This document shows positions 1,816-43,153 of a stretch of DNA of 64,000 nt, piece after piece. Numbering within the stretch: position 1 is the first letter of the stretch; each line of letters starts with the position of its first letter. Under the pieces are notes generated by a model. That model saw only the letters and a program-made list of their open reading frames with translations, was not told the DNA's origin and made no database searches. Source of the DNA: Apostichopus japonicus. Taxonomy: Eukaryota > Echinodermata > Holothuroidea > Aspidochirotida > Stichopodidae. Location: assembly GCF_037975245.1 (NCBI RefSeq), contig NC_092580.1, positions 2,702,501-2,766,500 of the forward strand, read 5' to 3'. Made by a program: the position numbers and the translations under genes.

Positions 1816-2000
1816 TTAAGCAAGTTATTAGTTACTGTCATCGTTTGTTCTACATGCCTTTATATGAAAGAGCATAATTTAAAGTACTACTGGTGTGAAA
1901 ATAGGGAGGATCGAAGGTGATATAAACCATTTTAGAAAATCTTTGGTTAAATGTTGATATTACTCCGAGCGAGCAGATGGAAGGGTGGGGGTTCAGTATG

Positions 2001-2198
2001 CTAAACTTGCTCCTCTTCTAGCTCAAAATCTAAACGGTCATGATGTGGAAGTTTGCAAATGCCATGATAGGCCAAGATCTCAGTTATCATGTGGTGGGTA
2101 GGATATACCAGCTGAAATGGTTTGGCAATGTATGCTTTATTCATGTACCCCTCTTGTAGTTGTTTATTTATTTGATTTAGAAAGAAAGTAAATTGCAC
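2001..2198 (-). other. short open frame conserved in all three units (possible exon or repeat relic)
   Basis: A 65-codon minus-strand frame ending HHDRLDFELEEEQV is kept open at the same place in all three units (also 17071-17268 and 30196-30393) with only a few amino-acid changes. The same HHDRLD stretch, in a sequence that soon hits a stop, recurs at about 44800-44830, which suggests a dispersed repeat rather than a gene. An AG at the CTACAAG just before the GYMNKAY codons could act as a 3' splice site. I do not recognise the peptide. Confidence 0.25.
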
Positions 2199-2809
2199 GA
2201 TCCTTGGCTAATCTGCTGCATCAAGGTACGCACTGCCAGTCCAAGTACATATACAGCGCCAACAGAGCGCCGGTTGGAATAACCGGTTGCAAGAATTTCA
2301 ACCAGTATTTACTTCCCATGCGGTTTACCGTGCTCAAATTTGGTTAAGACTTTCACATCCAGTGTGTAAATTTTAACCAGTTACATTGTTTAATATGTTT
2401 TAAAATTTCAACCCGTAGTAAATCAAACGACCCCCGACTTATAGCCTACCAATACATTACAGGACCTTGTACTCTCACTACGAGGAATCTATGTACATAT
2501 CATAAGTACGTGGTTCAATGTGTGATTTCTGTGGTAATCGACTTACTCCTGGCCTTACAGCGATTGTTTTACTTTGGGGATACCCAGTTTCTGTTAATTG
2601 AATCAAGTTAACGATCCAACAAAGCTAAATAAATCAATTTTCAATGAGTTTTCTTGTCGGAGGGAGGCTTCGAAAACAGTATTTCCCAATCACTGAAAAT
2701 ACAAAGAATGTCACTGCAGGACACGGTCAGTGACCTACTGTTTCAAAATAATTGGTATAGAAACAGGTGCGTATCCAGGGGGGGCGTTGGGGGCGCGCGC
2801 CCCCCGGGT

Positions 2810-2928
2810 AAGAAAAAGAGGAGAGAAAAAAAAGAGAAGAAAAAAGGAAAAAAGAGGGGAAAAAGAGGAGGAGAGGAAGGAAGGGAAAAGAAAAAGAAGA
2901 AAGAGAGAAGAAGGAGAAAAGGAGGGAG
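2810..2928 (+). repeat. uninterrupted 119-nt polypurine tract
   Basis: All 119 bases on the plus strand are A or G, and the tract continues with few pyrimidines to about 2972. It lies just inside the left end of the 2.2-kb transposon. It opens artificial lysine/glutamate/arginine-rich frames on the plus strand and serine/phenylalanine-rich ones on the minus strand, which are not genes. Confidence 0.9.
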
Positions 2929-3299
2929 TAAAAGAAAAACGCGAAGACACCGGGAAGAGAAAGAGGAACAGTGACATCATTACAGCGCTGAAGGGTAGCC
3001 AGTGACGGATCAATGATTTCGTAAAAGTGTGCCTCACCCTACCCCTTACACCGACAACTCCATTTTTTTGACGTTTCCATTTTCCTCTCTCACTAATGAT
3101 CTATATATATACTATATATGGTCTATCATAACGCGTGTGTAGAATTGTGCTATGAAACCAAATGTGGCTGGTCTCGAACTCGACCGTGTCGTCGGGGAAC
3201 ATGACGCATTTTGGGATGGGGGCGACCGCCCCCCCCCCCCATTCAGCATTTTTTTAAATGATATCGCTAAGTAATTTCAAAATAGAAAGTGCTTAGATG

Positions 3300-3500
3300 C
3301 AACTTACAAGGCCTGGGAAGTGTCATTTCCAGCGATCTGGGAGACATTTTCGGCCAAAATTTGCTTGTACGCTTCGCGCTAACAAATGGTCCTGGGTAGT
3401 GCCATTTCCAGCGATCTGGGAGGCATTTTCTGCCAACATTTTCTTGTACGCTTCGCGACAACCTATGGTGGCGCTACGCTTAGATAATTTGCCTACAGGC
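3300..3500. repeat. roughly 100-bp subterminal transposon motif, repeated
   Basis: A motif of the form 'GCCATTTCCAGCGATCTGGG ... TTGTACGCTTCGCG ... GGTGGCGCT(A/C)CGCTTAGATA' appears twice at 3300-3490 and again near 4125-4215 and 4830-4925, in the same orientation. These look like internal or subterminal repeats of the hAT-like elements. One of them lies inside the nested 385-bp element, linking the two elements as relatives. Confidence 0.7.
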
Positions 3501-3893
3501 TTCGCCCCTCCCTTGGCAAATTCCTCGCTACGCGCCTGTTCGAATTTGTAAAGCAAACAGCAGATATCACATCATATCAGTGAGCATGAAAATGGCGTTA
3601 CAGGATGAAAATCCTCAAAACTGTCCGACTTGCCTGAAAAAATAACCAAAAATTTTCGCGCGCGAAGCGCGCTTTCAACGTGTCAATGTCAATATCATAT
3701 AAGCAAGCATCGGTTATTACATCGCATGCCATCATGTACCGTACGGTCCGTTCAAATTGCGCAGTATACCGCGGGATGCTAATGTAAACAATGACATGTC
3801 TCATGTAGATGTATAAAAAGCATGGAGGTCCAATTATGTCAAAAGTTTCTTTTACATTAGTAATGGCGAATTAGGGGCTGCACCCCCGCCGCG

Positions 3894-4278
3894 CAGTGGC
3901 GGAGCGTCCATACGGTCAGGGGGCGGGGAATGCCCCCCCCCCCCTGACGGACTCAAATGGACTGCTGGCGCCTTTTTCAGCTCTTTACCACTTTTTACTT
4001 ATTCGCGATTATTGACTTTTTTATTGCGCTCTCATCTACTTATTGACATTTGTCACATTTTGTTGGTGTAATTTGGCGATGACACCCTATTCTTCGTTTA
4101 TCTGCAAATTAGCCAGGCCCTGAAAGGGTCATTTCCGGCGATCTAGGGAGTATCTTTACTCAAAAATTGTCTGAGCGCTACGCGCCAACCAGTGGTGGCG
4201 CTCCGCTTAGATAGTGTCGAAAGCACCCCTACAGACCATTCTCGCCCCTCCTGACCAATACCCCTAGCTCCGCCACTG
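3894..4278. mobile_element. nested 385-bp hAT-type MITE
   Basis: The ends are inverted repeats of CAGTGGCGGAG. They are flanked by an 8-bp target duplication with one mismatch, CCGCCGCG at 3886-3893 and CCACCGCG at 4279-4286. CAGTGGCG ends with 8-bp duplications are the hallmark of hAT elements. It is too short to code for a transposase and sits inside the larger element at 2764-4967, so it inserted later. Confidence 0.8.
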
Positions 4279-7044
4279 CCACCGCGCCTCCTGCGCCTAT
4301 GTGTGTAGTGTTCGGTTGAAGGAAATATCTGCTATTTTTTCATTTCCTTCAACCAAGTTTTATAATAGCCGTTATAAGAGGTTTAATATTTGTACACCAA
4401 TAAATTAACTGTGTCTGAATTTTAGAAAATTTCTGACCAACATTCTGCATCACACTTCCCTCTACTCGTGCAATTTTGACCGGTCAGTTAGGGGTTGAAG
4501 GAAGTTTTTCTATATTGGTTGTCCATAGATAAAATTTTGTACAACATTATGGGTATGTTTTGAAGTGAGTTTATTCACGAGAAATGTGAATTTTCAAATT
4601 CTGAACAAATTTGGGGCTTAAAACCTTGAAAAGTGGGGCTGACGGGTATTGTGGGCGGCGACGTAGAATCACCTACAAAAGCAAAGACCCACAGGACATG
4701 CGATCAGGTCGAACATGATGTGTGCCGGGTTGACAATATTCAAAAAGGTTATGGATGGAAAAAAAAAACTATTACGAAATACTTGGTTCTCAGGCAAAAA
4801 GTGTACATCTGGTTGGTCATTTCAAGCCCGAAAAGTGCCGTTTCCGGTGATCTGGGGGGGTATCAAAACAAGAAATTTTCTTGTACGCTGCGCGCCAACC
4901 GATGGTGGCGCTCCGCTTAGATAGTAATGCGCGCCCCCCGGGTTAGAAAATCCTGGATACGCGCCTGAGAAAGGTAGCAGTTGGTGCAGGCGATACAATC
5001 ATCATATATCATAGACGGTGCTTACGTAGCCTAGCCTATCGTTCTCATACTTAACTAAAGACATAACGTTAGGCTTAGTAGTTGTGTAGTACTATGATGG
5101 TCAACACATTGGTGTGATGAACTAACTTAAAAATGAGTAGCTTGTTGTCAATTAAGATGAAAAGGTAAAGGAAATAATAAGGAATAGACAATTGGTGCTT
5201 TACTGTGTAAAAAGGGCACTGAGATGATCAATGGATATGTACATAAAACATTGTGTCTGTAAAAACAAACGAATAACATAACAGAAAATTAAGGCAGTAC
5301 TTCCTTCCATCATCTATGTGCATAATTAGCTAATGTGTATTCATAATAAGACTAGAATGAAGGAAGGACTTCCGTAGACTTTAAATATAAGTTATGATCT
5401 AGAATGGAACTTACAAACAAACGTCGCATAATTCTGGTCAATTTTTGTAAAAATTAGCACCAAATTGCATACAAAGCACATACGTTTGTAACGCACCAAC
5501 TCAATTAGCTATCACGAACGGGACTTGTACAACACCAAGTAAGTAGGTGGACTAAAATATACTCTTAATATTTCAGTTTGAAGCTTTGAAATGATTAGGA
5601 AGTTCACTTGTTTCTGATACTGAATTCGAAATAAAATGACAAGTATGTTTACATCAAGTACGTCAATGGTAACAACTGCGTCGAGATACTGAACCTATAT
5701 CTACAGTTTTGGGCACAATCAAAGAAAGTTCTGCAAATTCAACTAATTTACAAATTTACGAAATAACTTGACAATGTAATGTAATCTTACATTAAATTAC
5801 TTTGGCTAACTTTGGCAAGCTGTCGTTCCCCGTTTTTCCAGTTACCTTTACCGATCATGAAGCTTAAAAAAACTAGTAACAACGCTCTGCAGTGATTGGA
5901 AAAAGAAAGCGAAAATGTACTCGTCGCGTGTTCAGAGTTCTACGTCTGGCCACCAAACTGATAAAAGGCTTCACGTGTATGTTTAGTGTTCGGTTTATGT
6001 TAGGTTAGCAAAAACAGTCGCCGGTTCAGGGAACTGATTTTGGAGTGTACACTCACTTTTTCAACCCCACACAGAAAGTAAATATAGCGCAACCTTCAGT
6101 GTAGATCTAACTATTTACCTATAATTTGTTGCCTGAATGTGCCTCGCATTGCACCATTTCATGTTCAAAATTTTATTTTCATATTTGTTTCTGGGGGAGG
6201 ACCCCAGATCCGTACACGTGATACTGCTTAAACGAGACCAGAGCAACACCCCATCCTATTTAAAACCAGGATCGGCCCCTGGAAGATACTGGTACAAAGT
6301 TGTATGAGTGACCACAATGTCGATGAGTTGCCCAAATTCTAAAAGTCAAGTTCCTCTGGCCAATTGCGACTTGGCAGGCGTTTCAAGCACATACTGTATG
6401 CTCAATATAGTTTGCGTACGCAAACGAAAATATTCTTCGCAAAAGTGTGAAGCCCAAGAATCCAATCAGAGAATGATAAACAAGAAATTAATTTTGCACT
6501 AATGTATCATGTATACATAAGAGAAACTGTAGGTAAGCAAATCACAACGACATTACTCGGTCATATGACTTCCTTGTCCAATAAGATGATGGAATGAACA
6601 TAAAAGTGTCGTGTGCAAATACTCCACATAAATCATTCGCAGAAGTGTTAAAACAATAACAAAAATCTGAAATGAACTTCATTAGTATAAGATCTGCTAA
6701 CAAACAAATAAAACAAACTAAAATTGAAGTGAGAAAGTACAAATTCGAAATAAAGTAATATCCATGAGAGTTAGAAAATGTGGTACGTTTTACAAATCCA
6801 TTCAAAATTCAAAGAAAACACTCTCCAGAAATTCAAAATGCGGGATATGTTACACGCGATGCAGATCAATCGGTACAGCTGTAGAAATATTGCTAGGACT
6901 CAATTTGCGTTTCGTTTTTGACCTGAGGTTATGATATATCAAGACTAAAATACTAACTGCAAGCATCCCCGAAACATAACCAAACTAAGTATAGTGTAGG
7001 CTACACTTTAAAGACGCAGTCAACTAACTCTTGTACACAGTTAA

Positions 7045-10000
7045 CTATCGGCGACCTTCTTTATGTATCTCAATTAAAATTCGTTTTGCGTTTAACTTTG
7101 AGACACCCAATTCCTTGTTTAATATTTCCACGTCTAAATCATAGAGAAGCGCTCCGTCGACCCTTTCCTTTTCAAAATTCTCTGTTACGTCAGATAAGCC
7201 GATACTGCAGAGGAACTTTAACACATCTGCAACCGAACCCTCTTTAAGAGAAGAGGTTACGGGTTCGGGTTTCACGTACACGTGGTTTGACTTGATCTGT
7301 TTGTTTAACCGGGCGACTTCCTCCTCTAAGCTCGAAATTTTCAGCAAGTGTTGTCTTCTCTCCTTTTGAAGTTCCTGTAAGACAAAAAAAATTAATGTAG
7401 TTGCAAGATCGGAGCATCGTAACAAAGCATTGTTAGGTACCAGAATTTTCAGATTGTGGTGGGGGGGGGGGGGGCTGAGGTGGGGCAAGTGCATGGTTGA
7501 GTTCAGGGGCAAGGTTCAGTGCAAACTGCACATGTATATATCAGGGGCACATCAAGGGCACCCCTCTCCTTTTTTCGAAGCCGTCAATGGACATAATACT
7601 GACTATTTCTGTTCTGTTCGTTACATATAATTGAATATTGAACCTGATGCGAATGAATTTTTAACCATACCTTTCTTGTTTAAAATGAGTGATATGAAAC
7701 GGACGAATTTATACTCACCGTAATCTTTGTTCTCAATTCCATCAGATCCTGTGTGAATAGAATACAAGATGTTGGGTGAGATGGATGAGATCTTCGCAAC
7801 AGATGCTTACTGATTGAAATAAATATTGGAAAACAATATATACCTTCCAGAACCTACTGGTTTCGATATTTACGAGTGACGAGCTTACCTGTCTCCCCAC
7901 AAGCTCAGCACCTCTTTCTACAGTGCCTAGAATGAACTGGTAACATTTCAATACTGTGCACCCTCTTTGTCCAGACCTCTCCTCCGGTCAATGTCCATCC
8001 CTTCTATGAAACCACCTCCCCCTTCCCGAAGTGATCCCTATCACACACCAGGGGCAATCTCGCCTAACCTCTTAGGAGATTCTACCCTCAATCCTTTGGC
8101 TTTTGTTCCAACCAGAGAATGAGATTACCTGTACGTCATGTGCAACATAAAATGTATAATACACATTAATAAATACATATATATATACACAGCTATACAA
8201 CTCAGTAAGTTTAAATGTGCTCAATCGCAAATGGTATAATGACTTATTTTAACCATCTCTATAACCAAACATGCCAAACTTTGACTTGTAACAATATTGT
8301 TATTTTTTTTTTGTCTATGACATTATACCACATATGCGGATGGGGTGTCGGTAAGAATGAAAAGCTTACAGTTTTGTCATGTGATGGTGTATGGCTGTTC
8401 CTTCGTGGTGCTGGAACGGGCGGGTACTGTACACTATTGTACGTGTCGTCACTGTCAATTAGAAAATGAAAAATTTTGTTTCAATTAATTATTAACCTTA
8501 CTTTAATTTCATAAATGATGCAAAAAATTTCCAATCATCCCCATCTCTTTGCCGCGAATATAGTCAATATAAGACTTGTCAATTAGCCAGTAACAATTTA
8601 GTTTAGGTTGCTTGACAGCATAAGGGGTCAAGAAACTACGCTTGACCCGAGGTTCAGCAAAAAGATATCGTAACAAGAATGCTATAATCGTCGGATGGAC
8701 AACTAAAAACTCCCCTCCAAACCTACTCACTTTCTGGAAACATCGTAGGTAATTGCATAGTGCAACGGAAAGAATAGTGATGATGATTAACCCCTTTCTA
8801 TTGATTATCAAGGTAACGGTAAACATGTGTTTACTAACCATACAAAAGTGGAAAGGTTTGAGTTCTTTACCTAAATGATGCGGCTCGCCTTTGTGATGTC
8901 GCTGGTTTTCTTGAAACAGCGGGCCTTTTTTTATCACGTGGGAGAGGAGTCGGTGGTGCTGTTCCGACTGTTTCCAGTTGCTTCTCTAACGATTTTATCC
9001 GTCGTGTTTGCTCTGCGATAGTGTCATTTTTAGATTTAACCGATCCTTCAGTTAGTCTTGCTGCTAGCTCATACCCTTTTAATAAAGATACAACAAATCC
9101 TTTTTTTTCATAAAGAAAAAAAAATGAAAAGATGATGTTTGCCACACATACATAAATCCATCGGAAGATAACATGAAAATTAAAGTGAGTGTCACCCGAT
9201 TATAAAGAGCAGTTAAAAAATAATTAGAAATCCACTTAAGAAAACTAAAATGGTTTCCTTCATTGATAAAGCAATTCAAACCGGAAAAATTATCTTTATA
9301 GAAAATTCAATGAAAACAATACGTATGCACGCCATTGGCTTTTACCGTTCCCAATAACCTCGGTATATTGTAAATATTTATTTTAGCTAAAACAATAAAA
9401 AAGATCCCCTGTCATTTCCATAAGAACAAAATGTTATTTGAATTTTGAAAGGTTACAGAGTATACGAACAATTTTCTAGATCACTTCGGTTTAACGAAGA
9501 CAGCTAATGAAATTATAATAGTAGGTCTACGAAACGACGTATATACAGGGAAATATGTCATTTAGCCTACATAAATCTTAAAATGACCAATCAAATCTTT
9601 AGTTAACGTTTAAAACACCTGAGTTTGAAAATTGCAAACATTTTGTGGTTTCTTTTTTTATGGTGTTCCACCCAATGAGGTATCGGTAAGAATGAATAAC
9701 TTACACTTTGTATAATGCTACAAAATATGTTTACCCTCCAACTGATCATAATAACCTCGTACAGTTAAGAAAGGCATTCTGCAGATATGTTATAGTCTTG
9801 AAAGAAGAATCAAAGAGCCATAACAAAGTTTTTCGGAGTAGAACCACCGAAGGACTAACCTTCTTTACTATTCATCCATTCCCGCAGAACACCTAGTAGC
9901 GGCTGCGGTATGCCGGTTAGATTGGGAGGGAGCGGCGTCCGGTCAACTTCATATAACCCCAGAGTCCAATTAACTAATGGATATAATTGTGACACGCTGT

Positions 10001-13000
10001 CCGCAAGGATAGGACTTTGATCGGCGATGTACTCCACCATAACTGTTGAAGTAAGAGGGATAGCATACACTGCCTCAGCCAGGGGAACTGTGGCGATAAC
10101 CTGGGCTTCGGCTTTGCACTCTTGAAGGGTGAAACAGCAACTCTTATCCTCTGTCTTGCGAACTCTCTGAAGAACAGAAACACAAAGAAGAGCGCCAATT
10201 TCGTAAAGTGTATAGCCTGCGAAATGTTTGTCACTCACTTTAAAACATCTTCATGTACAGTTTTATCGTCAAACATCGTTTCGTCTTATGGTGCTTTAAG
10301 TGTTCCCTGAAGTTTTTTTTTACTGAGCAATCTAGTCTGTTAACAGCTGAACTGTTATACATTTCGTATTAGTACCGTATTTAAGTGAAGCTGTACATAA
10401 TACCATATACAATAATGTATAGGTTAAAACGTGTGTACTGTAGAATGATACGATACAACCAAGCTGCAATCATGTAACACCATAATATAGCGATACCATG
10501 GTAATAAAACGTCAGCAGTAACATACTGATACCGTAACAGTTTTGAATGCTTGCTTCTCAAAAAACTAACAAGTGTATACTTTTTGGTAGATCGCATAAA
10601 TATCGATCTCTTTTCTTTTAAAGACAGAACTGGCGAGTCCATTTTATTGACTACAAAACTTCTGCACATAATTTTCTTATCGGATTTAATTGAAGCGGTG
10701 TCATTTGAATCTGTGAGAGGAAGTCGGATTGGTAAAGAATAGGGGTGATTATTAATCTTGTCCTATGTTGGTGGTCCCTTGGATTCGCCACCTTTTTCAT
10801 TTTCCAGTGACAAATAAAATGTGCTTACCAATGGAAGGTCATATTTCTTCATTATTTCTGAGAGATGGAGCGGCTGCTTGGATATCATCGTGGTATACAA
10901 AGATGTCATTTTCTCAGAGAAGGCAAACTGTTTTCTTGTTATTGTACTTTTTCCAACAAGGACCTATCATAGAAAAGAAAAGATAAATCCGACCTTCAAA
11001 ACATTTCTTGGGCATGTATCCCACGATAGACCTATACTTACAAGGTGAGTTGCTCTGCATTGCAACTACGCCCCTCCCCCCCCCCCCAAACTATGCTAAA
11101 TAAAATGGAAATAAACGACCAAAGAAGATGATTATATAGATATATTTCAATTGAGTTGGAAAATTCAGAACAGTGCAAACAGGATGGATGTGGCATTGGT
11201 TGGAACGTAAACCAGGGTCCATGAATACACCATACTCCCTCCCCACTCAACCCAATAACTATCAACCTAAATTATATGTAACATGTCATTAGGTCTTGAT
11301 CCTAACTATTTATAGGTATACAGCTGAGAGGATGCAGTAAACACTTATCAGTCAAGAAAGCATGTTGTGAATGATCTTACCTTTAGTTGCCCGCGACGTT
11401 CGATGTGACTAACGTCAATAATTTCTCCTGCCTCTTGGGATTCGTCTGGGTGACCCGAAGACACTGCAGCGAGAATCCGTAAACGTTTTGGAAGAGGCTT
11501 TGATTGGATGACTTCAGCTGTACCTTGAAACACTTTGTCATCGTGATGAGGTTCTGTAAATTAATGAAATTACAAATGATTTACCACTGATGATTCAAAC
11601 ACGTGTGCGTTACATACTATGTAATCTGCATGTAGGGCGATCAGGGGCATAATTTGCTACCTGGTCAGTGACCCCACCAGCGGAGTTGTGGACTTGGAAC
11701 AAGGGGGAATCAGAGAGAAAATTTGACATTAATTCGACGTCTGCTTTATTTGTTGGTAAGACAAATATGTACCAAATAAAGATTCGGTTTGGGCTGTATT
11801 ATTTTCTCTGAAAGATATAGTGAAGTACAATGTCCAGTATTTTACAGAAAGACAAAAATGATCACTATAGATTAGATGCCAAAATTCATGATCAAAAATC
11901 CAAATATTTGGCCCTGTTGCAAAAGTGTCTACATAAGGTTTGAGGCTAAGCACAACCTTTTTAAAAGAGTTGTTCGTAATATGAGCAACTTTACTTGTAA
12001 TTACTTGTATTGTCAACTCGACACCAATTGATGCAAGCAACTCCTCATTATTTTTTGTCCAGCTGTTGTGGTTGAAAATGTGACTGGTTTAAATGTTTCG
12101 TTTCTTTCAGAAAGAAATGTTAAGGCAATACCAAGTGAAATTATGTCTTCATATACGGTTTCAGTCACATATACCATCACGTTTGATGGGACGGATTATC
12201 ATAAAAATATCAATATCATAAAAATATCAAAATTTTTGTTGTTGTGATTGGCAGTGATAGTACGGTCATTCTGTACTAGCAGATATACCAGCCATTATAG
12301 TTGATGGACACAATGTATGGCTTGTAGTAAAGTTGCATAGCACTGTTTATTCAAAGCCACATTGGAGCATATAACGTGACAGAGACAGAAAACTATCAAG
12401 TTATTTGTCCAGGTAATCTTAAAGATAACTACACTCTGCCTTCTTACACTATCAGTATGAGCGATGCTAAGGTGGTTGTGTTGAGACACTGTATATATAT
12501 ACAAGAAGAACGGTAGGTGTTACCCTAATTTATGAGTTGTCTGTGATCATAAAAAAGAGCCTGACGTAAAAGTTTAAAGATGCAGTATATGAAATGTACA
12601 TGCAAATTTTCTACCCATGCAAGTAGCCAAGAGTAGATATGCTGTAGATCATCTGCATGTCCTTGGGCAGTATTAATGCAGTGCATTTGGCGTACTGTAG
12701 ATGAATGGGCTGTTACATTTATTGCTAAAATATAACCATGTTGTCCAGTACTATAATTCTATGGGGAGTGTAGGAAAAGATGTATCCAGCCTCTCTCTCA
12801 CTTATATTGTATTTGTTATATGTTTCCTCTAATGCAGATAGTTGCTCATAAATTGATAAAATGTACAGAGTGAGAGTAATGTTGTCACCAAAGTACATTC
12901 AGAAAGTGTCCCTTGTGCACCATCCAGAGTCTGTTGAAACCTTTGAAAGAAATGTTAAGCCTTGAAGGTAGTTTCACTTTGCAATATGCTGATCCAGACT

Positions 13001-15863: not shown

Positions 15864-16249
15864 TCTGTCGAATGAAAACCACACTTTGATGAGAAATCAA
15901 GATATTTATCGACTGCAGTCCTTAAAAGCACCCACATTTGTACATCTATATCACAATGTTAACTGTTGTCTCAATAATGGTGTATAGCGTATAGTTCCGT
16001 CTTATGGCAAGATTTCCCATTATGTTTCGGCGCGATACTCAAAACAACCTTTATACATATATACATACACACAACACTCAATACATACGTGATTACAAAC
16101 CAAATCAACATGTAATGGCAACGTTTGCAAAATACATAACTCTATATACGTTCACGATATGATTACTACTGGGGAAACCTGTCTTTGGCATGTAATTATA
16201 ATGGCATTGCATATACATACAAAACTAAGAAAGTTTTTACCATTCACAC

Positions 16250-16440
16250 ACACACACATACATAGATGGATATTTTCAAATAGGTCGTGGCTGCACACAG
16301 CGTCCCAAATTACGGCCCAATAGGCCCTAAAGATGTGGGACGATTGGTCAGATACCTTGATGAGGTCCAGGACCTTCTGGTCGAACCAGTTTATCAAGGT
16401 TCGGTCCTTTGAGGACCCAGAAATTGTAAGTTCAATAGCG
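16250..16440 (-). other. conserved minus-strand open segment upstream of gene copy 1
   Basis: A minus-strand frame reading TLINWFDQKVLDLIKVSDQ and onward is identical in units 1 and 2 (second copy near 29370-29560) and lies about 0.4-0.6 kb 5' of exon 1. It could be part of a 5' untranslated exon, an old transposon relic, or chance. Unit 3 lacks it because its homology ends at 43151. I do not recognise the peptide. Confidence 0.2.
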
Positions 16441-32100: not shown

Positions 32101-33059
32101 TATTTACCTATAATGTGTTGCCTGAATGTGCCTCGCAATGCACCATTTCATGTTCAAAATTTTATTTTTATATTTGTTTCTGGGGGAAAACCCCAAATCC
32201 GTACACGTGATACTGCTTAAACGAGACCAGAGCAACACCCCATTCTATTTAAAACCTGGATCGGCCCCTGGAAGATACTGGTACAAAGTTGTTTGAGTGA
32301 CCACAATGCCAAATTCTAGAAGCCAAGTTCCTCTGGCCAATTGCGACTTGGCATGCGTTTCAAGCACATACTTTATGCTCAATATAGTTTGCGTACGCAA
32401 ACGAAAATATTCTTCGCAAAAGTGTGAAGCCCAAGAATCCAATCAGAGAACGATAAACAAGAAATTAATTGTGCACTAATGTATCATGTATACATAAGAG
32501 AACTGTAGGTAAGCAAATCACAACGACATTACTCGGTCATATGACTTCCTTGTCCAATAAGATGATGGAATGAACATAGAAGTGTCGTGTGCAAATACTC
32601 CACATAATATGTAATAAAAGTGTCGTGTGCAAATACTCCACATAAATCATTTGCAGAAGTGTAAAACCAATAAAAAACATCTGAAATGAACTTCATTAGT
32701 ATAAGATCTGCTAAGAAACAAATAAAACAAACTAAAATTGAAGTGAGAAAGTACAAATTCGAAATAAAGTAATATCCATGAGAGATAGAAAATGTGGTAC
32801 GTTTTACAAATCCATTCAAAATTCAAAGAAAACACTCTCCAGAAATTCAAAATGCGGGATATGTTACACGCGATGCAGATCAATCTGTACAGCTGTAGAA
32901 ATATTGATAGGACTCAATATTCGTTTCGTTTGTGACCTGGGGTTATGATATATCAAGACTAAAATACTGACTGCAAGCATCCCCGAAACATAACCAAACT
33001 AAGTATAGTGTAGGCTACACTTTAAAGACGCAGTCAACTAACTCTTGTACACCAATTAA

Positions 33060-36000
33060 CTATCGGCGACCTTCTTTCTGTATCTCAATTAAAATTCGTT
33101 TTGCGTTTAACTTTGAAACACCCAATTCCTTGGTTAATATTTCTACGTCTAAATCATAGAGAAGCGCTCCGTCGACCCTTTCCTTTTCAAAATTCTCCGT
33201 TACGTCAGATAAGCCGATACTGCAGAGGAACTTTAACACATCTGCAACCGAGCCCTCTTTAAGAGAAGAGGTTACGGGTTCATGTTTCACGTATACGTGG
33301 TTTGACTTGATCTGTTTGTTTAACCGGGCGACTTCCTCCTCTAAGCTCGAAATTTTCAGCAAGTGTTGTCTTCTCTCCTTTTGAAGTTCCTGTAAGACAA
33401 ATCATTTAATGTAGTTGCAAGATCGAGGCATCAGAACAAAGCATTGTTAGGTACCAGAATGTTAAGATTTTGTGTGTGGGGGGGAGGGGGAGGGGGAGGG
33501 GGGGGGGGCTGAGTTGGGGAAAGTGCATGGTTGAGTTGAGGGGGCAAACATTTGGAAGTGCAAAACTGCACATGTATAAATGCACATCAAGGGCATTTCG
33601 ATGCCGTCAATGGACATTATACTGATTATTTATGTTCTGTTCGTTACATATACTTGCCTTTGAATATCGAACCTGACGCGAATGAATTTTTAACCATACC
33701 TTTCTTGTTTAAAATGAGTGATATGAAACGGACGAAATTATACTCACCGTAATCTTTGTTCTCAATTCCATCAGATCCTGTGTGAATAGAAAACAAGATG
33801 TAGGGTGAGATGGATGAGATTTTCGAAAAGATACTTACTTATTCAAATATATATTGGAAAACGATATATATTCCAAAACTTACTGGTTTCGATATTTACG
33901 AGTGACGAGCTTACCTGTCTCCCCACAACCTCAGCACCTCGTTCTACCGTGCCTAGAATGAACTCGTAACATTTTAATACTGTGCGCCCTCTTTGTCCAG
34001 ACCTCTCCTCCGGTCAATATCCATCCCTTCTTTGAAACCACCTCCCCCTTCCCGAAGTGATCCCTATCACACACCAGGGGCAATCTCGCCTACCCTCTTA
34101 GGAGATTCTTCCCTCAATTCTTTGGCTTTTGTTCCAACCAAGAGAATGAGATAACCTGTACGTCACATGCAATATACAATGTATAATACACATCAATAAG
34201 TACATATAAACACAGCTATACGACTCAGTAAATTTAAATGAAATCATGTGCTCAATCGCAAATGGTATAATGACTTAATTTAACCATCTCTATGCCAAAC
34301 ATGCCAAACTTTGACTTGTAACAATATTATTTTCTTTTTTTTTTCTATGACATTATACCACATATGCCGATGGGGTATCGGTAAGAATGAAAAGCTTACC
34401 GTTTTGTCATGTGATGGTGTTTTGTCATGTGAGGGTGTATGGCTGTTCCTTCGTGGTGCTGGAACGGGCGGGTACTGTACACTATTGTACGTGTCGTCAC
34501 TGTCAATTAGAAAATGAAAAATTTTGTTTCAATTAATTATTAACCTTACTTTAATTTCATAAATGATGCACAAATTTCCAATCTTCCCCATCTCTTTGCC
34601 GCGAATATAGTCAATATAAGACTTGTCAATTAGCCAGTAACAATTAGTTTTGGTTGCTTGACAGCATAAGGGGTCAAGAAACTACGCTTGACCCGAGGTT
34701 CAGCAAAAAGATATCGTAACAAGAATGCTATAATCGCCGGATGGACAACTAAAAAACTCCCCTCCCAACCTACTTTCTGGAAGCATCGTATGTCATTGCA
34801 TAGTGAAACGGGAAGAATGGTGACGATGATTTTAACCCCTTTCTATTGATTATCAAGTTAATGGTAAACATGTGTTTACTAACCATACAAAAGTGGAAAG
34901 GATCGAGTTCTTTACCTAAATGATGCGGCTCTCCTTTGTGATGTCGCTGGTTTTCTTGATACAGCAGGCTTTTTTTTATCAGGTGGGAGAGGAGTCGGTG
35001 GTGCTGTTCCGACTGTTTCCAGTTGCTTCTCTAATGATATTATCCGTCGTGTTTGCTCTGCGATAGTGTCATTTTTAGATTTAACCGATCCTTCAGTTAG
35101 TCTTGCTGCTAGCTCATACCCTTTTAATAAAGATACAAATACAAATACTGTCTTAAAAAAAAATATGAAAAGATGATGTGTGCCACGCATACATAAATCC
35201 ATCGGATGATAACATGAAAATGAAAGTAAGTGTAAGCCGATTATATAGACCAGTTAAAAATTAATTAGAAATCCACTTAAAAAAACTAAAATGGTTTCCT
35301 TCACTGATAAAGCAATTCAAACCGGAAAAATTCTCTTTATAGAAAATTCAATGAAAAAATAGGCAGCACGCCATTGGCTTTTACCGTTCCCAATAACTTG
35401 AGTATATTGTAAATATTAATTTTATCTAAAGCAATAAAAAAGATCCCATGTCATTTGCATAAGAACAAAATGTTATTTGAATTTTGAAAGGTTACAGAGT
35501 ATAAGAACAATTTTCTAGATCACTTCGGTTTTTATGACCATTTGTGAAAAATTCTATATCACAACGAAGACAGCTAATGAAAATATAATAGTAGGTCTAC
35601 GAAACGACGTATATACAGGGAAATAATTCATGTAGCCTACATACATCTTAAAATGACCAATCAAATCTTTAGTTAACGTTTTAAACAACTTAGTTTGAAA
35701 ATTGCACACATTTTGTAGTTTCTTTTTTATGGCGTTCCACCCAATGAGGTATTGGTAAGAATGAACAACTTACACTTTGTATGCTACAAAATATGTTTAC
35801 CCTCCAACAGATCGTTATAAACTCGTACACTTAAAGAAAGGCATTCTTCAGATATGATATATACTTGAAAGAAGAATCAAAGACACATAACAAAGGTTTT
35901 CGGATAGAAACACTGAAGGACTAACCTTCTTTACTATTCATCCATTCACGCAGGACATCTAGTAGCGGCTGCGGTATGCCGGTTAGATTGGGAGGGAGCG

Positions 36001-39000
36001 GTGTCCGGTCAACTTCACATAACCCCAGAGTCCAATTAACTAATGGGTATAATTGTGACACGCTGTCCGCCAGAATAGGACTTTGATCGGCGATGTACTC
36101 CACCATGACTGTTGAAGTAAGAGGGATAGCATACACTGCCTCAGCCAGGGGAACTGTGGCGATAACCTGGGCTTCGGCTTTGCACTCTTGAAGGGTGAAA
36201 CAGCAACTCTTATCCTCTGTCTTGCGAACTCTCTGAAGAACAGAAACACAAAGAAGAACGCCAATTTCGTAAAGTGTATACGTGTTGTATGGACAGCCTG
36301 CGAATGTCTGTCACTCTGTACTTATCTCATCTTCATGTACAGTTTAATTGTCAAACATCGTTTCGTCTTATGGTGTACATAAATTATGTCTATTATATAA
36401 AACCCGTTTTTCGACAAGGATATATTAAACTGCACAAAACCTTGCTTTTAGTGTTCCCTGAAGTTTTTTTACTGAGCAATCTAGTCTGTTAACAGCTGAA
36501 CTGTAATACATTTTGTATTAGTACCGTATTTAAGTGAAGCTATACATAATACCATACAATAATGCTAGGTTAAAACGTGTGTACTGTAGAATGATACGAT
36601 AATACAACCAAGTTGAAATCATGTAACAACATAATACAGCGATACCATGCTAATAAACGTCAGCATGCAGAAACATACTGATACCGTTACGTTTTAGAAC
36701 GCTAGCTTCTCAAAAACTAACAAGTGTATATTTTTTGGTAGATCGCATAAATATTGATCTCTTTTCTTTTAAAGACAGAACTGGCGAGTCCATTTTATTG
36801 ACAAAAGAACGTCTACCACATAATTTTCTTATCGGTGAGAGGAAGTCGGATTAGTAAAGTATATGGGTGATTATTAGTCTTGTCCTAAGTTGGTCCCTTG
36901 GATTCGCCACCTTTTTCATTTTCCAGTCACAAATAAAATGTGCTTACCAATGGAAGGTCATATTTCTTCATTATTTCTGAGAGATGGAGCGGCTGCTTGG
37001 ATATCATCGTGGTATACGAAGATGTGGTCATTTTCTCAGAAAAAGCAAACTGTTTTCTTGTTATTGTACTTTTTCCAACAAGGACCTAACAGAAAAAGAG
37101 ATAAAAATCAGCCCTTCAAAACATTTCTTGGGCATGTATCCCACGGTAGACCAATACTTACAAGGTGAGTTGCTCTGCATTGCAACTACGCCCCTCCACC
37201 CCTTCCCCCCCCCCCCCCCAACACTGTATGATATTTATATATATATATATATTGAGTTGGAATATCCAGAACAGTGAAAAAACGTCCCACCTCCACCGGG
37301 ATTCGACCCCGGGTCTCCCGCTTTATATGCAGACACCCTAACCAACAAGGCTATGAACGCTAAATGTATGTCCAGAGGTTCGAAACCAGTGAGGAAGGTC
37401 GTAATTCCACTGTAGGTGTTTGCCACCTGTATCGAACAATGCTAATTCTGTTTTGGTAACAAACACATTTTGCCTCATTTTAGAGATCAAATCAAGACGC
37501 TAACCAACTCGAATTCATCTGTGAATCCAATAGCCGGATCTCGAAAGAGATACTTTGGTCAATTTATCATAAATGAAATGGAAATAAACGACCAAAGAAG
37601 ATGAATATACATATATATTTCAATATGAGTTGGAAAATTCAGAACAGTGAAAACAGGATGGATGTGGCATTGTTAACCAGTTAACGTTAACCAGGGTCCA
37701 TGAATACACCATACTCCCTGCCCACTCAACCCAATAACTATCAACCTAAATTATATGTAACAACATGTCATTTTGTTTTGATCCTAACTATTTAAAAGGT
37801 ATATAGCTGTGCAGATGCAGTAAACACTTATCAGTCAAGAAAGCATGTTGTGAATAATCTTACCTTTAGTTGCCCGCGACGTTCGATGTGACTGACGTCA
37901 ATAATTTCTCCCGCCTCTTGGGATTCGTCTGGATGACCCGAAGACACTGCAGCGAGAATCCGTAAACGTTTTGGAAGAGGCTTTGATTGAATGACTTCAG
38001 CTGTACCTTGAAACACTTTGTCATCGTGATGAGGTTCTGTAAATTAATGAAATTACAAATGATTTATCACTGATGATTCAAACACATTATAACATATGTA
38101 ATCTGCATGTGGGCGATCATGGGCATAATTTGCTACCTGGTCAGTGACCCCACCAGCGGCGTTGTGGACTTGGAACAAGGGGGAATAAGAGAGAAAATTT
38201 GACATTGATTTGTCTGCTTCATTGATGGTAAGACAGATATGTACCAAATAAAGATTCGGTTTGGGCTGTATTACTTTCTCTGAAAGATATAGTGAAGGAC
38301 ACAGTCCAGTATTTTACAGAAAGACAAAGATTACTAGATTACTGTAGATGCCAAAATTCATGATCAAAAATCCAAATATTTGGACCTGTTGCAAAAGTGT
38401 CTACATACTGTAAGGTTTGAGGCTAAGCACAACCTTTTTAAAAGAGTTGTTAGGAATATGAGCAACTTTACTGGTAATTACTTTAATGATTTTAATTACT
38501 ATGTATTGTCAACTCGACACCAATTGATGCAAGCAACTCCTCATTATTTTTTGTCCAGCTGTTGTGGTTGAAAATGTGACTGGTTTAAATGTTTCGTTTC
38601 TTTCAGAAAGAAATGTTAAGGCAATACCAAGTGAAATTATGTCTTCATATACGGTTTCAGTCACATATACCATCACGTTTGATGGGACGGATTATCATAA
38701 AAATATCAATATCATAAAAATATCAAAATTTTTGTTGTTGTGATTGGCAGTGATAGTACGGTCATTCTGTACTAGCAGATATACCAGCCATTATAGTTGA
38801 TGGGCACAATGTATGGCTTGTAGTAAAGTTGCATAGCACTGTTTATATATCAAAGCCACATTGGAGCATATAACGTGACAGAGACAGAAAACTATCAAGT
38901 TATTTGTCCAGGTAATCTTAAAGATAACTACACTCTGCCTTCTTACACTATCAGTATCAGCGATGCTAAGGTGGTTGTGTTGAGACACTGTATTTGTACA

Positions 39001-42000
39001 AGAAGAACGGTAGGTGTTACCCTAATTTATGAGTTGTCTGTGATCATAAAAGAGAGCCTGACGTAAAAGTTTAAAAATGCAGTAGATGACATGTAAATGC
39101 AAATTTTCTAACCATGGAAGTAGCCAAGAGTAGATATGCTGTAGATCAGCTGTCCTTGGGCAGTATTAATGCAGTGCATTTGGCGTACTGTAGATGAATG
39201 GGCTGTTACATTTATTGCTAAAATATAACCATGTTGTCCAGCACTGTAATTCTATGGGGAGTTTAGGAAAAATATATAGCCAGCCCTCACTTATATTGTT
39301 ATTTTTCCTCCAATGCAGATAGTTGCTCATAAATTGATACAATGTACAAAGTGAGAATATAACCAAAGGACATTCTGAAGGTGTCCCTTGAACAACGTCC
39401 AGAGTCTGTTGAAAACCTTGTTGAATACTTTGAAAGAAAAGTTAAGCCTCGAAGGCAGTTTCACTTTGCAATATGCTGATCCAGACTTTGATGGTGAAAA
39501 TGGTGAATCTGACAAATGCAAATACGATTGACCAGAGACAAGTGCATCATACCAATTGATGTACACTGAAATCGCTTATGATCAGTGCTATCAGAGTAGT
39601 ACACCCTCACTGCAATCTGTCAGTTCAGGCCATACTGAGACAAAGGTCTTGGACAGACGTTTTTGAGTTACCTAAAGTATGACTAGGGCTTGAACTAAAC
39701 AATATTATGTGCAAAACTAGCTTACAGGCTTGTACAGTTAGCCACTCTTTGCTAAATCAACTCTTTGCATAGAAAACTTGATTATTATAACCAGTGTAAT
39801 TTGAATTAATCCGTCTGGATTTACACAAACTCAGTTCTAAAATGTGTTTGCTTCAAGTTCGCTTTGGGTTGACCATGTGATAACTTCATCTGCTATTATG
39901 TCGAGAACCTCATGTAGATATGAACTGAACGCAACTTTCCCTTTGCATAATGCTTATATTAAGTTCCTTTTTAACATATCAAAAGCGATATTTTAGCTTA
40001 TACCCTTTTATTAAAAGAGTTTTGTTTGTCTTAATGTTAGGAGAGAAGGTTGTCTGAGTTCTCAAACGTTTCCTTTGTTTTAGTGGAAAAACACTTAACT
40101 TCTTCAGTAACAAGCCATTAATATATATCCTTGAGAGAAAGGACCCCCTTTCGTTTTCGTAGCATTGTAAAGAAATAGTTCGCTGAACCTTGATGTTTGG
40201 TTTGGATTCAGTTTTCCATTCTGATATTAAGCAACAACAAGAGCAGTTTATTTGAACCATCGTAAGTACAAACTGTGTCATAGACACATTTTTCTTTTTT
40301 TAATGTTTCCACCAACAAAATTATTTGGTACATTTTATGTATTTGATGGTTTCCATGTCCTTGTTAAAGTACATTGTCATTGGTTCAAAAGTTGGAAAAT
40401 AAAGTTGTGTTGTTAACGGAGCAATATCTAGTTGTCTTTGATTAAATTGGTCTACTAAAATCTGTTGATATAAGTCAAAAGTGTTGAGGTAAGCCGCAGC
40501 CTAGAATATGCTAAGTAGAGTCAAATTAAATATTCCAAGTTAACTCTAAAATTAATTGGTATTGGGGTGAACCTAAATTAGTCTTGTTAGTTTAAAGAGG
40601 AAAAGATGTGCTTTATCACCTCTAAACTTTTAGTAACCATAACTTGTCCAGCTTTTTCTCAAGAAAAAAAATTGATAAAGATTGAGTTTGACTTTGGTGA
40701 TATCTGTTGCCATTATAACTTATGAGCAAACCAGTACTGTCAAATCTTACTTGAGGTGTGTCTGGGTTAGTGGAGTGAACTTTAAACGTTAGTTAATTTG
40801 GCAGCGGGTTATCTCGACGTTTTCAAGTTATCTTGACATGTAGTGTTTGACAGTGCATGACTGACTGTATGATAATGTGTTGTTATTGTCCCCTTTGTTT
40901 GTTGACCTTTGTTAATCTTTTATAGGCGAATCAAATATCAGCACAAATATATATAATGAACTTAAGTATACTCTGTGTTAATCTGCACTTGGTATTAGGT
41001 AAGGTTTACCTTAGTGTATTCCGAGGGGGGAATCTTGTATAATTTCTTCCCCAATCACCATTCCCAATCACAAACTCTTTTGTGATTTGATGACGATTCA
41101 CATGATATGAACAGTACGGCCTTGCAGGGAGGTGTTAGAGATGTGATAGAGATAACTGTCACGAAAAACTTTCCAAACAGCTAAGAAAAATATGATTCCA
41201 TTTTTGTGATGTCACAGATTTACTATTCGTTCACACAAGACTGAATAATTGATCAAGTCAAATATGACATCTGCGAGGCAAATGTGGTTCAACTTTCTTC
41301 TTTTTTTAATTTATTTATTTATTACACCTCCCTGGGCATACACACTTCTCATAGTTATTGAAACCTACAATGTTGAATATATCTTACTCATCTAGTCTTT
41401 AGTTGACCCACTATCTTCCATCCATCCCCCAACCCCTATCCCTATGAAACTTTAGCCAGTTAGTCTGCAACTCCCTTTATCACAAAGATGTTAATGATAA
41501 GTTGACTGACGTTCATGTGAGTAATTCCCATCCATCATTGTACTGGAGATAGGCCCCAAGGTTTTGGTTGTTGCTTTTATGTACCGCAGTATATCTCTGA
41601 TATGGAATGAACATATAAAGCCAAACTTTCCGAGTGGGGAAAATAATTTACTGGGTGGGGCTTTGTTTACTGTAGTTGTCAAAATCATTTAATTGGGGGG
41701 GGGGGTATTTTCCCACCCAGTTAGTGTGTTATTTATACTCATTGGCGTAGGAAGGTACTTTTGAGTGTGGGGGGAGGGCTGAAGACTGATGGCCGACCTG
41801 GGGGAGGGGTCTAAGGAAGGGGGTGTCCCCCTCCCCCTTTGGATTTTTTTTTTGCATTTCCAGGTGGCCTCAGATGCAATTTGGTGCAATATAGCACACT
41901 TCAACACCCACTCCTTTTTGTAAACTTAATTTTGTATTTTCACCTGGCCATAGATGCAATTTGGTGCTCCAAATGAGTTTTGTTTTCTCATTTGGAAATG

Positions 42001-42753
42001 AAAAAGGGGTTTTCTGACTTGCGAAGCGCGGAATGATACTTCCGCCCCTCCACATTTTTCACTGGGGGGGCTGGCGCCCCCAGCCTCCCGGTTCCTACGC
42101 CCTTGTTTATACTTCACAGGAGACAATATCTCACTGATTGAATCCATTAACGCCAAGGAAAACGTAAGCCAATTTGGTGCACTGTCCGTCGTGCATTGTA
42201 AATTACCTATAGTTCCCACTAAAACCCCATCCCTAATACCCCATAACATATCCCCAACACCCCTTCACACACCCGTAACACCCCATAACGCATCCCTAAT
42301 AATACATCCATTATACAGCCCCTGCATGCATCAGAAGAAACGTGCGGCTATGAAAGTAACTTGAACATTACCTCTTGGCAAAACATCATACAGTTGTCGA
42401 GCATAGAGTGGTAGAACAATTTCCTTCCCATTTTTATCTGTAGCGAAGACCTTCTTCGGTCTAATGATGAAATGTAATGTGAGTGTCCTTCCTCTCCTTA
42501 CTACTTTGGTATCTCTCCTTTCGTCTAGTACTAACTCTTCTTTAAGTCTAACGAAGAAAGGAAGTTGCCGCTTGGACAATATCTCAGTTAATGGAGTATG
42601 GTAGACAGCGTTAAGTTCTTCCCCCGTTGGGACGAACTTTAAATCAACTTTCCTGACTTTCATCTGGCCATTAAGAAGTTTATCTCTATGCTGCAAGATT
42701 TCGCTGTAGTACTCCGGTTCCGTGGAGCGAGTAGTGTCCCTACGCCGCGACAT
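33060..42753 (-). CDS. CABIT / coiled-coil / SAM adaptor, GAREM-like (copy 3), nine exons, 570 aa
   Basis: Minus-strand exons: 42372-42753, 37864-38036, 36948-37085, 35926-36232, 34916-35120, 34400-34499, 33915-33962, 33748-33777, 33060-33389. The sum is 1713 nt with matching phases and GT/AG borders. Domain order equals copy 1: CABIT-type region in exons 1-4, coiled coil (exon 5), linker with YNSVQYPPVPAPRR (exon 6), second coiled coil (exons 7-9) and a SAM domain at about residues 507-567. It differs from copy 1 by one extra residue in exon 3, a duplicated TPSHDK hexapeptide in exon 6, changes at residues 25, 26 and 28, and loss of the YxxP motif before the SAM domain (YVKH instead of YVKP). 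The 5' flank differs from the other copies beyond 43151, so its promoter may differ. The signalling role is inferred from GAREM/THEMIS family members. Confidence 0.86.
37233..37572 (-). mobile_element. tRNA-derived SINE in intron 2 (unit 3)
   Basis: Essentially identical to the SINE in unit 2, at the orthologous position. The B-box region is at about 37299-37310 and the TATA tail at 37234-37252. Its absence in unit 1 and near-identity in units 2 and 3 mean that the block spread by duplication or conversion after insertion. Confidence 0.75.
38231..39527 (+). pseudogene. decayed fragments of an uncharacterised gene family, opposite strand in intron 1 (unit 3)
   Basis: Same series of plus-strand fragments as in unit 2, including RFEAKHNLFKRVVRN near 38413 and the LQYADPDFDGENGES stretch near 39468, with the same stops. 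It is nearly identical to the unit 2 copy, so it was duplicated with the unit after it had decayed. Confidence 0.58.
41740..42105. mobile_element. 366-bp hAT-type MITE, only in unit 3
   Basis: The ends are CATTGGCGTAGGAA and, inverted, CAAGGGCGTAGGAA. The flanks are a perfect 8-bp duplication TTTATACT (41732-41739 and 42106-42113), present once at the empty sites in units 1 and 2 (about 15222-15229 and 28344-28351). This identifies a hAT-type insertion after the triplication. It has no coding capacity. It shares a G/C-rich palindromic module with the element at 47879-49288. Confidence 0.9.
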
Positions 42754-43153
42754 TCTGTCGAATGGAAACCACACTTTGATGATAAATCAAGATATTTATC
42801 GACTGCAGTCCTTAAACGCACCCACATTTGTACATCTATATCACAATGTTAACTGTTGTCTCAATATTGGTGTATAGCGTATAGTTCCGTCTTATGGCAA
42901 GATTTCCCATTATGTTTCAGCGCGATACTCAAAACAGCCTTTATACATATATACATACACACAACACTCAATATATACGTGATTACAAACCGAATCAACA
43001 TGTTATGGCAACGTTTGCAAAATACATAACTCTATATACGTTCACGATATGATTACTACTGGGGAAACCTGTCTTTGGCATGTAATTATAATGGCATTGC
43101 ATATACACACAAAACTAAGGAAGTTTTTACCATTCACACACACATACATAGCC

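What the first reader, a model, noticed from the sequence alone, without database searches (positions are those of the whole stretch)
1816..43151. Tandem triplication of a 13-kb unit, each carrying a complete nine-exon CABIT-SAM adaptor gene
Three direct repeats with the same gene, introns and flanks, next to a fourth, divergent member on the opposite strand. Vertebrates have few GAREM/THEMIS genes, each usually single-copy, so local expansion suggests lineage-specific diversification of receptor tyrosine-kinase or immune-type signalling. The high identity between units means either recent duplication or continuing homogenisation.
Basis: partly seen in the sequence, partly recalled or inferred. 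Interest (0 to 1): 0.75.

Follow-up and report, generated by a model that had tools for sequence, protein, structure and literature searches.

The report
Sea-cucumber cluster of GAREM-like adaptor genes
A sea-cucumber-like genome carries a local cluster of six related signalling-adaptor genes, three of them tandem copies that have exchanged sequence, with the middle copy broken; an ordinary kind of gene-family growth in an adaptor family that is small in mammals.

Summary
The triplication is real in the assembly: three direct repeats, 1816-16885, 16886-30010 and 30011-43151. Each holds the same minus-strand gene, for which I model eight coding exons (not nine). SAM is clear. CABIT falls below Pfam's cut-off, but a profile comparison with two CABIT genes elsewhere in the same genome, one of them Pfam-positive, supports it (E 4.6e-8). 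Architecture: CABIT, proline-rich stretch, heptad-like stretches, SAM; GAREM-type rather than THEMIS-type.

(1) The middle gene is not complete: a 116-bp deletion in exon 4 brings an immediate stop. (2) The array belongs to a larger cluster of six genes; two more minus-strand members lie left of the window, and the plus-strand member has two candidate first exons. (3) Unit 2 is a mosaic: unit-3-like over 7 kb (0.30% different), unit-1-like on both sides (0.2-2.1%), so duplication and later exchange both occurred. (4) Units 1 and 3 are under purifying selection (dN/dS 0.16). (5) Two further CABIT genes sit on another contig.

Most likely a lineage-specific expansion of GAREM-like adaptors. Function is inferred from architecture, and copy number needs long reads.

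The parts
1816..16885 (.). tandem unit 1
   Evidence: self-BLAST and three-way alignment
16886..30010 (.). tandem unit 2 (mosaic of unit-1-like and unit-3-like sequence)
30011..43151 (.). tandem unit 3; ends at a TA microsatellite and lacks the ~625 bp that close units 1 and 2
7045..15863 (-). unit 1 gene, intact, 547 aa; coding exons e1 15482-15863, e2 11381-11553, e3 10829-10963, e4 9860-10166, e5 8871-9075, e6 8370-8451, e7 7719-7748, e8 7045-7374
   Evidence: splice sites and frame conserved between units; no transcript evidence
19838..28985 (-). unit 2 gene, BROKEN in exon 4 (240 residues to a stop); e1 28604-28985, e2 24507-24679, e3 23596-23733, e4 remnant 22689-22879, e5 21680-21884, e6 21162-21261, e7 20525-20554, e8 19838-20173
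22850..22851 (-). site of the 116-bp deletion in exon 4 of the unit 2 gene
33060..42753 (-). unit 3 gene, intact, 554 aa; e1 42372-42753, e2 37864-38036, e3 36948-37085, e4 35926-36232, e5 34916-35120, e6 34400-34499, e7 33748-33777, e8 33060-33389
19922..26968 (.). tract of unit 2 that is unit-3-like (0.30% different; 284 of 296 informative sites; longest identical run 2,182 bp)
1816..2117 (.). dispersed ~300-bp repeat at the head of unit 1 (also at 16886 and 30011)
   Evidence: 40 places were scored of 1420 first-look candidates; 3 are the array, the other 37 match only about query positions 1-302
2759..4967 (.). 2.2-kb insertion present only in unit 1
50291..50738 (+). gene C, candidate first exon a (ATG, phase-1 donor)
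52966..53458 (+). gene C, candidate first exon b (ATG, phase-1 donor)
55565..63421 (+). gene C, downstream exons (model incomplete): e2 55565-55761, e3 57047-57178, e4 58488-58800, e5 60136-60343, e7 61950-61979 (30 nt, predicted by splice-site score), e8 with SAM 63014-63421; e6 not found, so the join from e5 to e7/e8 is open

Best explanation
The locus is a tandem cluster of six GAREM-like adaptor genes (A and B left of the window, the three units, and C on the plus strand), most likely expanded within this lineage. Shown by sequence: exons 1-4 encode a region homologous to CABIT, exons 5-6 a proline-rich stretch with one ITIM-like tyrosine motif, and exon 8 a C-terminal SAM domain; exons 5, 7 and 8 carry heptad-like, possibly coiled-coil, stretches. 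Shown: two older copies (units 1 and 3), a middle copy closest to unit 1 in its flanks, and a 7-kb unit-3-like tract inside that middle copy; unit 2 has an exon-4 deletion. Inferred: a near-copy of unit 1 arose by unequal exchange, unit 3 then converted its middle, and the deletion came afterwards or arrived as a polymorphic allele. Inferred from architecture: the intact proteins work as scaffolds that receive tyrosine phosphorylation, bind SH3/SH2 partners of the Grb2 kind through the proline-rich and tyrosine motifs, and self-associate through SAM and the heptad stretches.
For: Repeats. Spliced models with the same phases in units 1 and 3, and a predicted 30-nt exon of the same phase in genes C and B. 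SAM_1 E 4.3e-9; best solved relative 2dkz, 'hypothetical protein LOC64762', E 5.2e-5, identified as GAREM1 by recall only. CABIT: profile of the exon-1 stretch (6 sequences) against the first CABIT part of two C17 genes, probability 94.9, E 4.6e-8, 0 of 60 column shuffles reach it; whole CABIT region, probability 91.7, E 7.8e-7, 0 of 100 shuffles; one C17 gene passes Pfam CABIT (25 bits, cut-off 24). Mosaic: log-likelihood gain 172 against at most 11 in 200 shuffles. Purifying selection: dN/dS 0.157, Fisher p 7e-9 on rounded counts. Cluster: all matches at E below 1e-5 to four protein queries lie in C20:2.69-2.77 Mb, except one SAM match at C17:28174462, E 9.8e-6 (the tool scores only its best candidates, exon by exon).
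Against: The Pfam CABIT score of unit 3 is 15.6 bits and of the unit 1 region 13.9, against a cut-off of 24; genes A, B and C and a consensus gave no CABIT match. Other profile pairs are weak: the second CABIT part of the C17 genes matches the three cluster stretches with probabilities of only 2.4, 1.1 and 26.5 (one of 60 shuffles reached the first), and the exon-4 alignment against the C17 pair gave probability 4.3. The strict cysteine core motif (as I recall it) is absent in 5 of 5 sequences, and its loose form appears in 137-284 of 2000 shuffles of the four cluster sequences. Unit 1 has no PxxPx[KR] SH3 ligand; unit 3 has one and gene C several. Gene A is weak in the genome searches (E 0.0019 at best) and rests on local tblastn. 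Models of A, B and C are incomplete. No transcript or protein data. Copy number rests on one assembly. The C17 comparison set holds two sequences, one with a guessed junction residue.
Confidence: 0.72

Rival explanations
1. Unit 2 is an assembly product: the two haplotypes of a two-copy array (units 1 and 3) were strung together, so the living genome has two units per haplotype.
For: Unit 2 is nearly identical to unit 1 on its flanks (0.16-2.06%) and to unit 3 in its middle (0.30%), divergences that alleles could have.
Against: It needs two switches between non-allelic units. The assembly resembles the published Apostichopus japonicus HiFi/hifiasm assembly (671.6 Mb; mean read 14.7 kb, longer than a 13.1-kb unit; 64-fold; PMC10344927, passages), which should resolve units ~5% apart; the match is by size and contig number only and is not exact. 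Unit 2 also has its own 116-bp deletion. No N in the window.
Confidence: 0.15
2. Unit 2 arose in one step by unequal crossing-over between units 1 and 3, without gene conversion.
For: The right-hand switch (near 26968) is what one such crossover in a two-copy array would leave.
Against: There is a second switch back to unit-1-like sequence on the left (17828-19921: 2.06% from unit 1, 4.83% from unit 3), so at least one more exchange is needed. The middle (0.30%) also looks younger than these flanks (0.87% and 2.06%).
Confidence: 0.2
3. Exons 1-4 are not CABIT but an unrelated beta-barrel region fused to a SAM domain.
For: Pfam CABIT below cut-off; strict core motif absent; low-confidence model of exon 1 gives only weak matches, mostly SH3, E 0.012 or worse; weak or failed profile pairs.
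Against: Profile comparison with same-genome CABIT genes at E 4.6e-8 over 69 columns, 0 of 60 shuffles; N-terminal CABIT to C-terminal SAM order as in GAREM; the strands predicted for exon 1 fit CABIT's described all-beta nature (PMC3931654, passages).
Confidence: 0.07
4. The copies diversify under positive selection as part of an immune recognition or signalling repertoire.
For: Local expansion with turnover and sequence exchange; older members only 28-34% identical to unit 1 in the CABIT region; some single-exon ratios are raised (exon 1: 0.42, 0.40 and 0.91; exon 8 units 2-3: 0.83) but on 4 to 13 changes each.
Against: Whole-gene dN/dS of units 1 and 3 is 0.157, and 0.156 and 0.158 in the two parts of the protein; one copy is broken; no expression evidence.
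Confidence: 0.1

Closest known systems
GAREM1/GAREM2 (FAM59A/B), Grb2-associated regulators of Erk/MAPK
   Same: One CABIT region, proline-rich stretch and SAM (architecture from PMC4082722, passages); the SAM's best solved match is LOC64762, GAREM1 by recall; an ITIM-like tyrosine motif, as reported for GAREM1 Y453 (PMC8086153, passages).
   Different: 547-554 aa (GAREM1 is longer, by recall); heptad-like stretches between the proline-rich part and SAM, with a 30-nt exon; CABIT too divergent for Pfam's cut-off; six genes side by side.
Two CABIT genes on C17 of the same genome (L004, L005)
   Same: CABIT homology by profile; the L004 gene has a SAM ending ...GWRPNDN with 2dkz at E 5.8e-9.
   Different: The L004 gene has a 575-codon open frame with long proline runs and SAM. 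In the L005 gene I saw CABIT only; no SAM in the 10 kb fetched. The L004 CABIT query finds the L005 gene (E 6.1e-4) but nothing in the C20 cluster at E up to 10.
THEMIS1-3
   Same: CABIT family; proline-rich stretch.
   Different: THEMIS has two consecutive CABIT domains and is described without SAM (PMC4082722, passages); the cluster has one CABIT-like region and SAM.

Membership tests
CABIT domain (PF12736) | Pfam score at or above the curated cut-off (24 bits) | tested here: not met
   Unit 3 15.6 bits, E 0.012; unit 1 region 13.9 bits; genes B, C(a), C(b) and a consensus no match; gene A no CABIT match
CABIT domain (PF12736) | Homology to a sequence that does pass the cut-off | tested here: met
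   C17 gene in L005 scores 25 bits, the one in L004 18.8; cluster exon-1 profile against the first part of both, E 4.6e-8, 0 of 60 shuffles; whole region E 7.8e-7, 0 of 100 shuffles. The second part of the C17 genes matches weakly
CABIT domain (PF12736) | Cysteine-containing core motif (pattern recalled, from no call) | tested here: not met
   Absent in 5 of 5 sequences, the C17 gene of L004 included; the loose form is common in shuffles
CABIT domain (PF12736) | All-beta fold | tested here: inconclusive
   Exon-1 model: seven strands after a short helix, mean pLDDT 56.6 (about 70 over residues 61-127), best PDB match E 0.012; exon-4 model unusable, pLDDT 44.7
GAREM | C-terminal SAM domain | tested here: met
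   SAM_1 37.1 bits against cut-off 23, residues 492-550 of 554 in unit 3; gene C exon 8 26.6 bits
GAREM | Proline-rich region with SH3 (Grb2) ligands | tested here: inconclusive
   PxxPx[KR]: none in unit 1, one in unit 3 (PLPPDK in exon 5), and in both candidate first exons and exon 5 of gene C (pieces scanned). Binding not testable here
GAREM | Single CABIT region | tested here: met
   Exons 1-4 give one region of about 300 residues made of three apparently related stretches; 3 of 3 profile pairs among them beat all 60 column shuffles, but with low probabilities (8-32%)
GAREM | Orthology in a gene tree with other deuterostomes | not testable with these tools
   No collection with animal genomes other than this one
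THEMIS | Two tandem CABIT domains and no SAM | tested here: not met
   One region, SAM present

The most novel reading that the evidence does not exclude
The C20 cluster is a copy-number-variable, gene-converting repertoire of CABIT-SAM adaptors, a sub-family of its own with a heptad/30-nt-exon insert and alternative first exons that swap the first part of the CABIT region, used in sea-cucumber coelomocyte or receptor-kinase signalling; animals in one population would differ in number and sequence of intact copies.
Probability: 0.15. Interest if true: 0.6.

Novelty: new member of a known kind. Interest (0 to 1): 0.33.

Why it matters
The CABIT family is described as having five members in mammals and as traceable to cnidarians (PMC4082722, passages), and CABIT's own function was called unknown in 2014 (PMC3931654, passages). 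A cluster with intact, broken, converted and long-diverged members in one genome gives natural sequence variants for finding which parts of CABIT are constrained. If copy number varies between animals, it would also be a marker for signalling variation in what looks like a farmed species. The duplication and conversion themselves are ordinary.

Tried and rejected
Pfam CABIT as a family search of the own genome found nothing, and its 14 control genomes did not ring either, so that result says nothing. A draft protein joined from open-frame fragments gave no CABIT match; the spliced model gave 15.6 bits. A consensus of six CABIT regions gave no Pfam match. The recalled CABIT core motif failed, and its loose form is not specific. 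The exon-4 structure model was unusable, and the exon-1 fold search gave only weak matches, none at E 0.001 or better. Exon 6 of gene C was not found by splice-site scoring (one search ended in a script error and was redone). THEMIS-type architecture was rejected (SAM present, one region). A haplotype artefact was considered and kept as a rival. Searches of the held library for CABIT or GAREM expansions in echinoderms gave nothing on point (listings and starts of abstracts only); a first try to name the assembly from its size found nothing, a second found PMC10344927. ARAGORN found no tRNA, whereas Rfam reported two tRNA matches.
Full report
THE OBSERVATION. Self-comparison of the window gives three direct repeats beginning at 1816, 16886 and 30011 and ending at about 43151. 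Unit 1 is longer because of a 2.2-kb insertion at 2759-4967; unit 3 has about 420 extra bp in two inserts near 41.66-42.11 kb and lacks the ~625 bp that close units 1 and 2. At its right end unit 3 runs into a TA microsatellite. The window has no N and lies at C20:2702501-2766500 of a genome of 671,581,487 bases in 35 contigs. Size and contig number come close to the published Apostichopus japonicus HiFi assembly (671,643,915 bases in 34 scaffolds; PMC10344927, passages) but are not identical.

THE GENE. All three units carry one gene on the minus strand. Splice sites were found by reading frame, conservation between units and phase. I find eight coding exons (382, 173, 135/138, 307, 205, 82/100, 30 and 330/336 nt), not nine; an untranslated exon cannot be excluded. 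Units 1 and 3 are intact (547 and 554 aa). In unit 2 a 116-bp deletion inside exon 4 puts a stop directly after RVRKTEDKS, leaving 240 residues without SAM. An AG 16 nt into that exon would keep the frame with 44 codons lost; whether it is used is unknown. So 'complete' holds for two of three copies.

WHAT THE PROTEIN IS. SAM is clear (SAM_1, 37.1 bits against a cut-off of 23). Its best relative among solved structures is 2dkz, 'hypothetical protein LOC64762' (E 5.2e-5), which I recall to be GAREM1. CABIT is harder. Unit 3 gets 15.6 bits against a cut-off of 24, the unit 1 region 13.9 bits, and four of five queries gave nothing. The genome has two other CABIT genes, on C17. The one in L004 scores CABIT 18.8 bits, below the cut-off, and has a SAM matching 2dkz at E 5.8e-9. 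The one in L005 (found) scores 25 bits, above it; no SAM was seen in its 10 kb. Against the first CABIT part of these two genes, the exon-1 profile of the cluster scores probability 94.9, E 4.6e-8 over 69 columns, with 0 of 60 column-shuffled controls reaching it; the second and third cluster stretches score 85.7 and 73.6, 0 of 60 each. The whole region scores probability 91.7, E 7.8e-7, 0 of 100 shuffles. Against it: the second CABIT part of the C17 genes matches the three stretches with probabilities of 2.4 (one of 60 shuffles as good), 1.1 and 26.5; exon 4 against the pair gives 4.3; the recalled cysteine core motif is absent; the comparison set is two sequences, one with a guessed junction residue. 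On balance I take CABIT as supported.

Exons 1-4 hold three apparently related stretches with an LxxLxxxxLPxxV-like element. Exon 1 alone is modelled as a helix and seven strands with modest confidence, and its best PDB matches are mostly SH3 domains or chains that contain one, none better than E 0.012: suggestive only. Exons 5-6 hold PxxP motifs and one ITIM-like VQYPPV; unit 3, not unit 1, has a PxxPxK. Heptad-like stretches lie in exon 5 (1 of 1000 shuffles as good) and in exons 7-8 (35 of 1000). [quoted passage not shown]

THE CLUSTER. Genome searches with exon 1, exon 4, exon 8 and the gene C protein find, besides the three units, gene C on the plus strand and two minus-strand members left of the window: gene B, whose exon 1 lies about 200 bp left of the window start, and gene A, about 11 kb left. 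Gene A is weak there (E 0.0019 at best); in local tblastn four of its exons match at E below 0.001, three of them at 2e-6 or better, and exon 4 only at 0.21. All matches at E below 1e-5 to these four queries lie in C20:2.69-2.77 Mb, except one SAM match at C17:28174462 (E 9.8e-6), the L004 gene; the tool scores only its best candidates, exon by exon, so this is not proof of absence elsewhere. CABIT-region identities to unit 1 are 97% (unit 3), 34% (B), 28% (A) and 34% (C). Genes C and B have a predicted 30-nt exon of the same phase as exon 7 of the units, which rests on splice-site scores. The models of A, B and C are incomplete between exon 4 or 5 and the SAM exon, so that each is one CABIT-SAM gene is inferred from order and strand. 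Gene C has two candidate first exons, each with ATG and a phase-1 donor, and only one exon 2 was found after them: probably alternative starts.

HOW THE ARRAY EVOLVED. Along the three-way alignment, 315 informative sites join units 2 and 3, 161 join units 1 and 2, and 40 join units 1 and 3, out of 516 (columns within 3 of a gap were left out). They are not mixed: within unit 2, 19922-26968, 284 of 296 sites (1=3 sites set aside) join units 2 and 3; outside, 31 of 180. The likelihood gain is 172 against at most 11 in 200 shuffles. Divergences: middle, units 2-3 0.30% and units 1-2 5.10%; right flank, units 1-2 0.87% and units 2-3 4.03%; left flank, units 1-2 2.06% and units 2-3 4.83%; head (first 942 bp), 0.74-0.96% for all pairs, which I cannot explain by the same steps. 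The simplest account is an older pair (units 1 and 3), a younger near-copy of unit 1, and a still younger overwriting of its middle by unit 3. The deletion in unit 2 lies inside that tract. The unit begins with a ~300-bp dispersed repeat (40 places scored of 1420 first-look candidates; 37 of them lie outside the array), a possible but unproved site of the first exchange.

SELECTION. Units 1 and 3: dS 0.079, dN 0.012, ratio 0.157, and the same in exons 1-4 (0.156) and exons 5-8 (0.158); Fisher p 7e-9 on rounded counts. Single-exon ratios are higher in places (exon 1: 0.42 for units 1-3, 0.40 for 2-3, 0.91 for 1-2; exon 8: 0.13, 0.83 and 0.27 for the same pairs) but rest on 4 to 13 changes. Overall this is purifying selection, not diversification.

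MECHANISM. By architecture these are cytoplasmic scaffolds of the GAREM kind: GAREM is tyrosine-phosphorylated on EGF stimulation and binds Grb2 through a proline-rich region (PMC8086153, passages). For these proteins every such step is inferred. PxxPx[KR] ligands are absent in unit 1, single in unit 3 and several in gene C, so partners may differ between members.

VERDICT. A real tandem triplication in the assembly, one copy broken, inside a six-gene GAREM-like cluster. New members of a known kind; I found no description of this cluster in the held library (listings and starts of abstracts only), which misses most subscription papers. The main uncertainty is whether the middle unit exists in the animal.

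Noticed in passing
50291-50738 and 52966-53458, + strand: Two candidate first exons of gene C, 36% identical over the matched part, each with ATG and phase-1 donor, ahead of a single exon 2; alternative promoters would swap the first stretch of the CABIT region. [quoted passage not shown]
   Followed up: partly
12239-13134 and 13824-14375 (and equivalents in units 2 and 3): Intron 1 holds remnants of dispersed elements: partial matches of 74-80% identity at more than twenty other places, in several of which the two pieces lie about 3-4 kb apart.
   Followed up: no
23931-24003 and 37288-37360, - strand: Rfam tRNA matches (39.3 bits each) in intron 2 of units 2 and 3 only, inside a 340-bp stretch that unit 1 lacks; ARAGORN calls no tRNA. 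Probably a tRNA-derived repeat.
   Followed up: partly
45530-46491 and 55915-56898: Two minisatellites (copy spacing about 96 and 33 bp), one between the array and gene C and one in the intron between exons 2 and 3 of gene C; the 33-bp one gives long open frames on both strands that are probably not genes.
   Followed up: no
L004 5489-7213 (C17:28172989-28174713): A 575-codon open frame of a GAREM-like gene with very long proline runs and a C-terminal SAM; a second CABIT gene lies 114 kb away on the other strand.
   Followed up: partly
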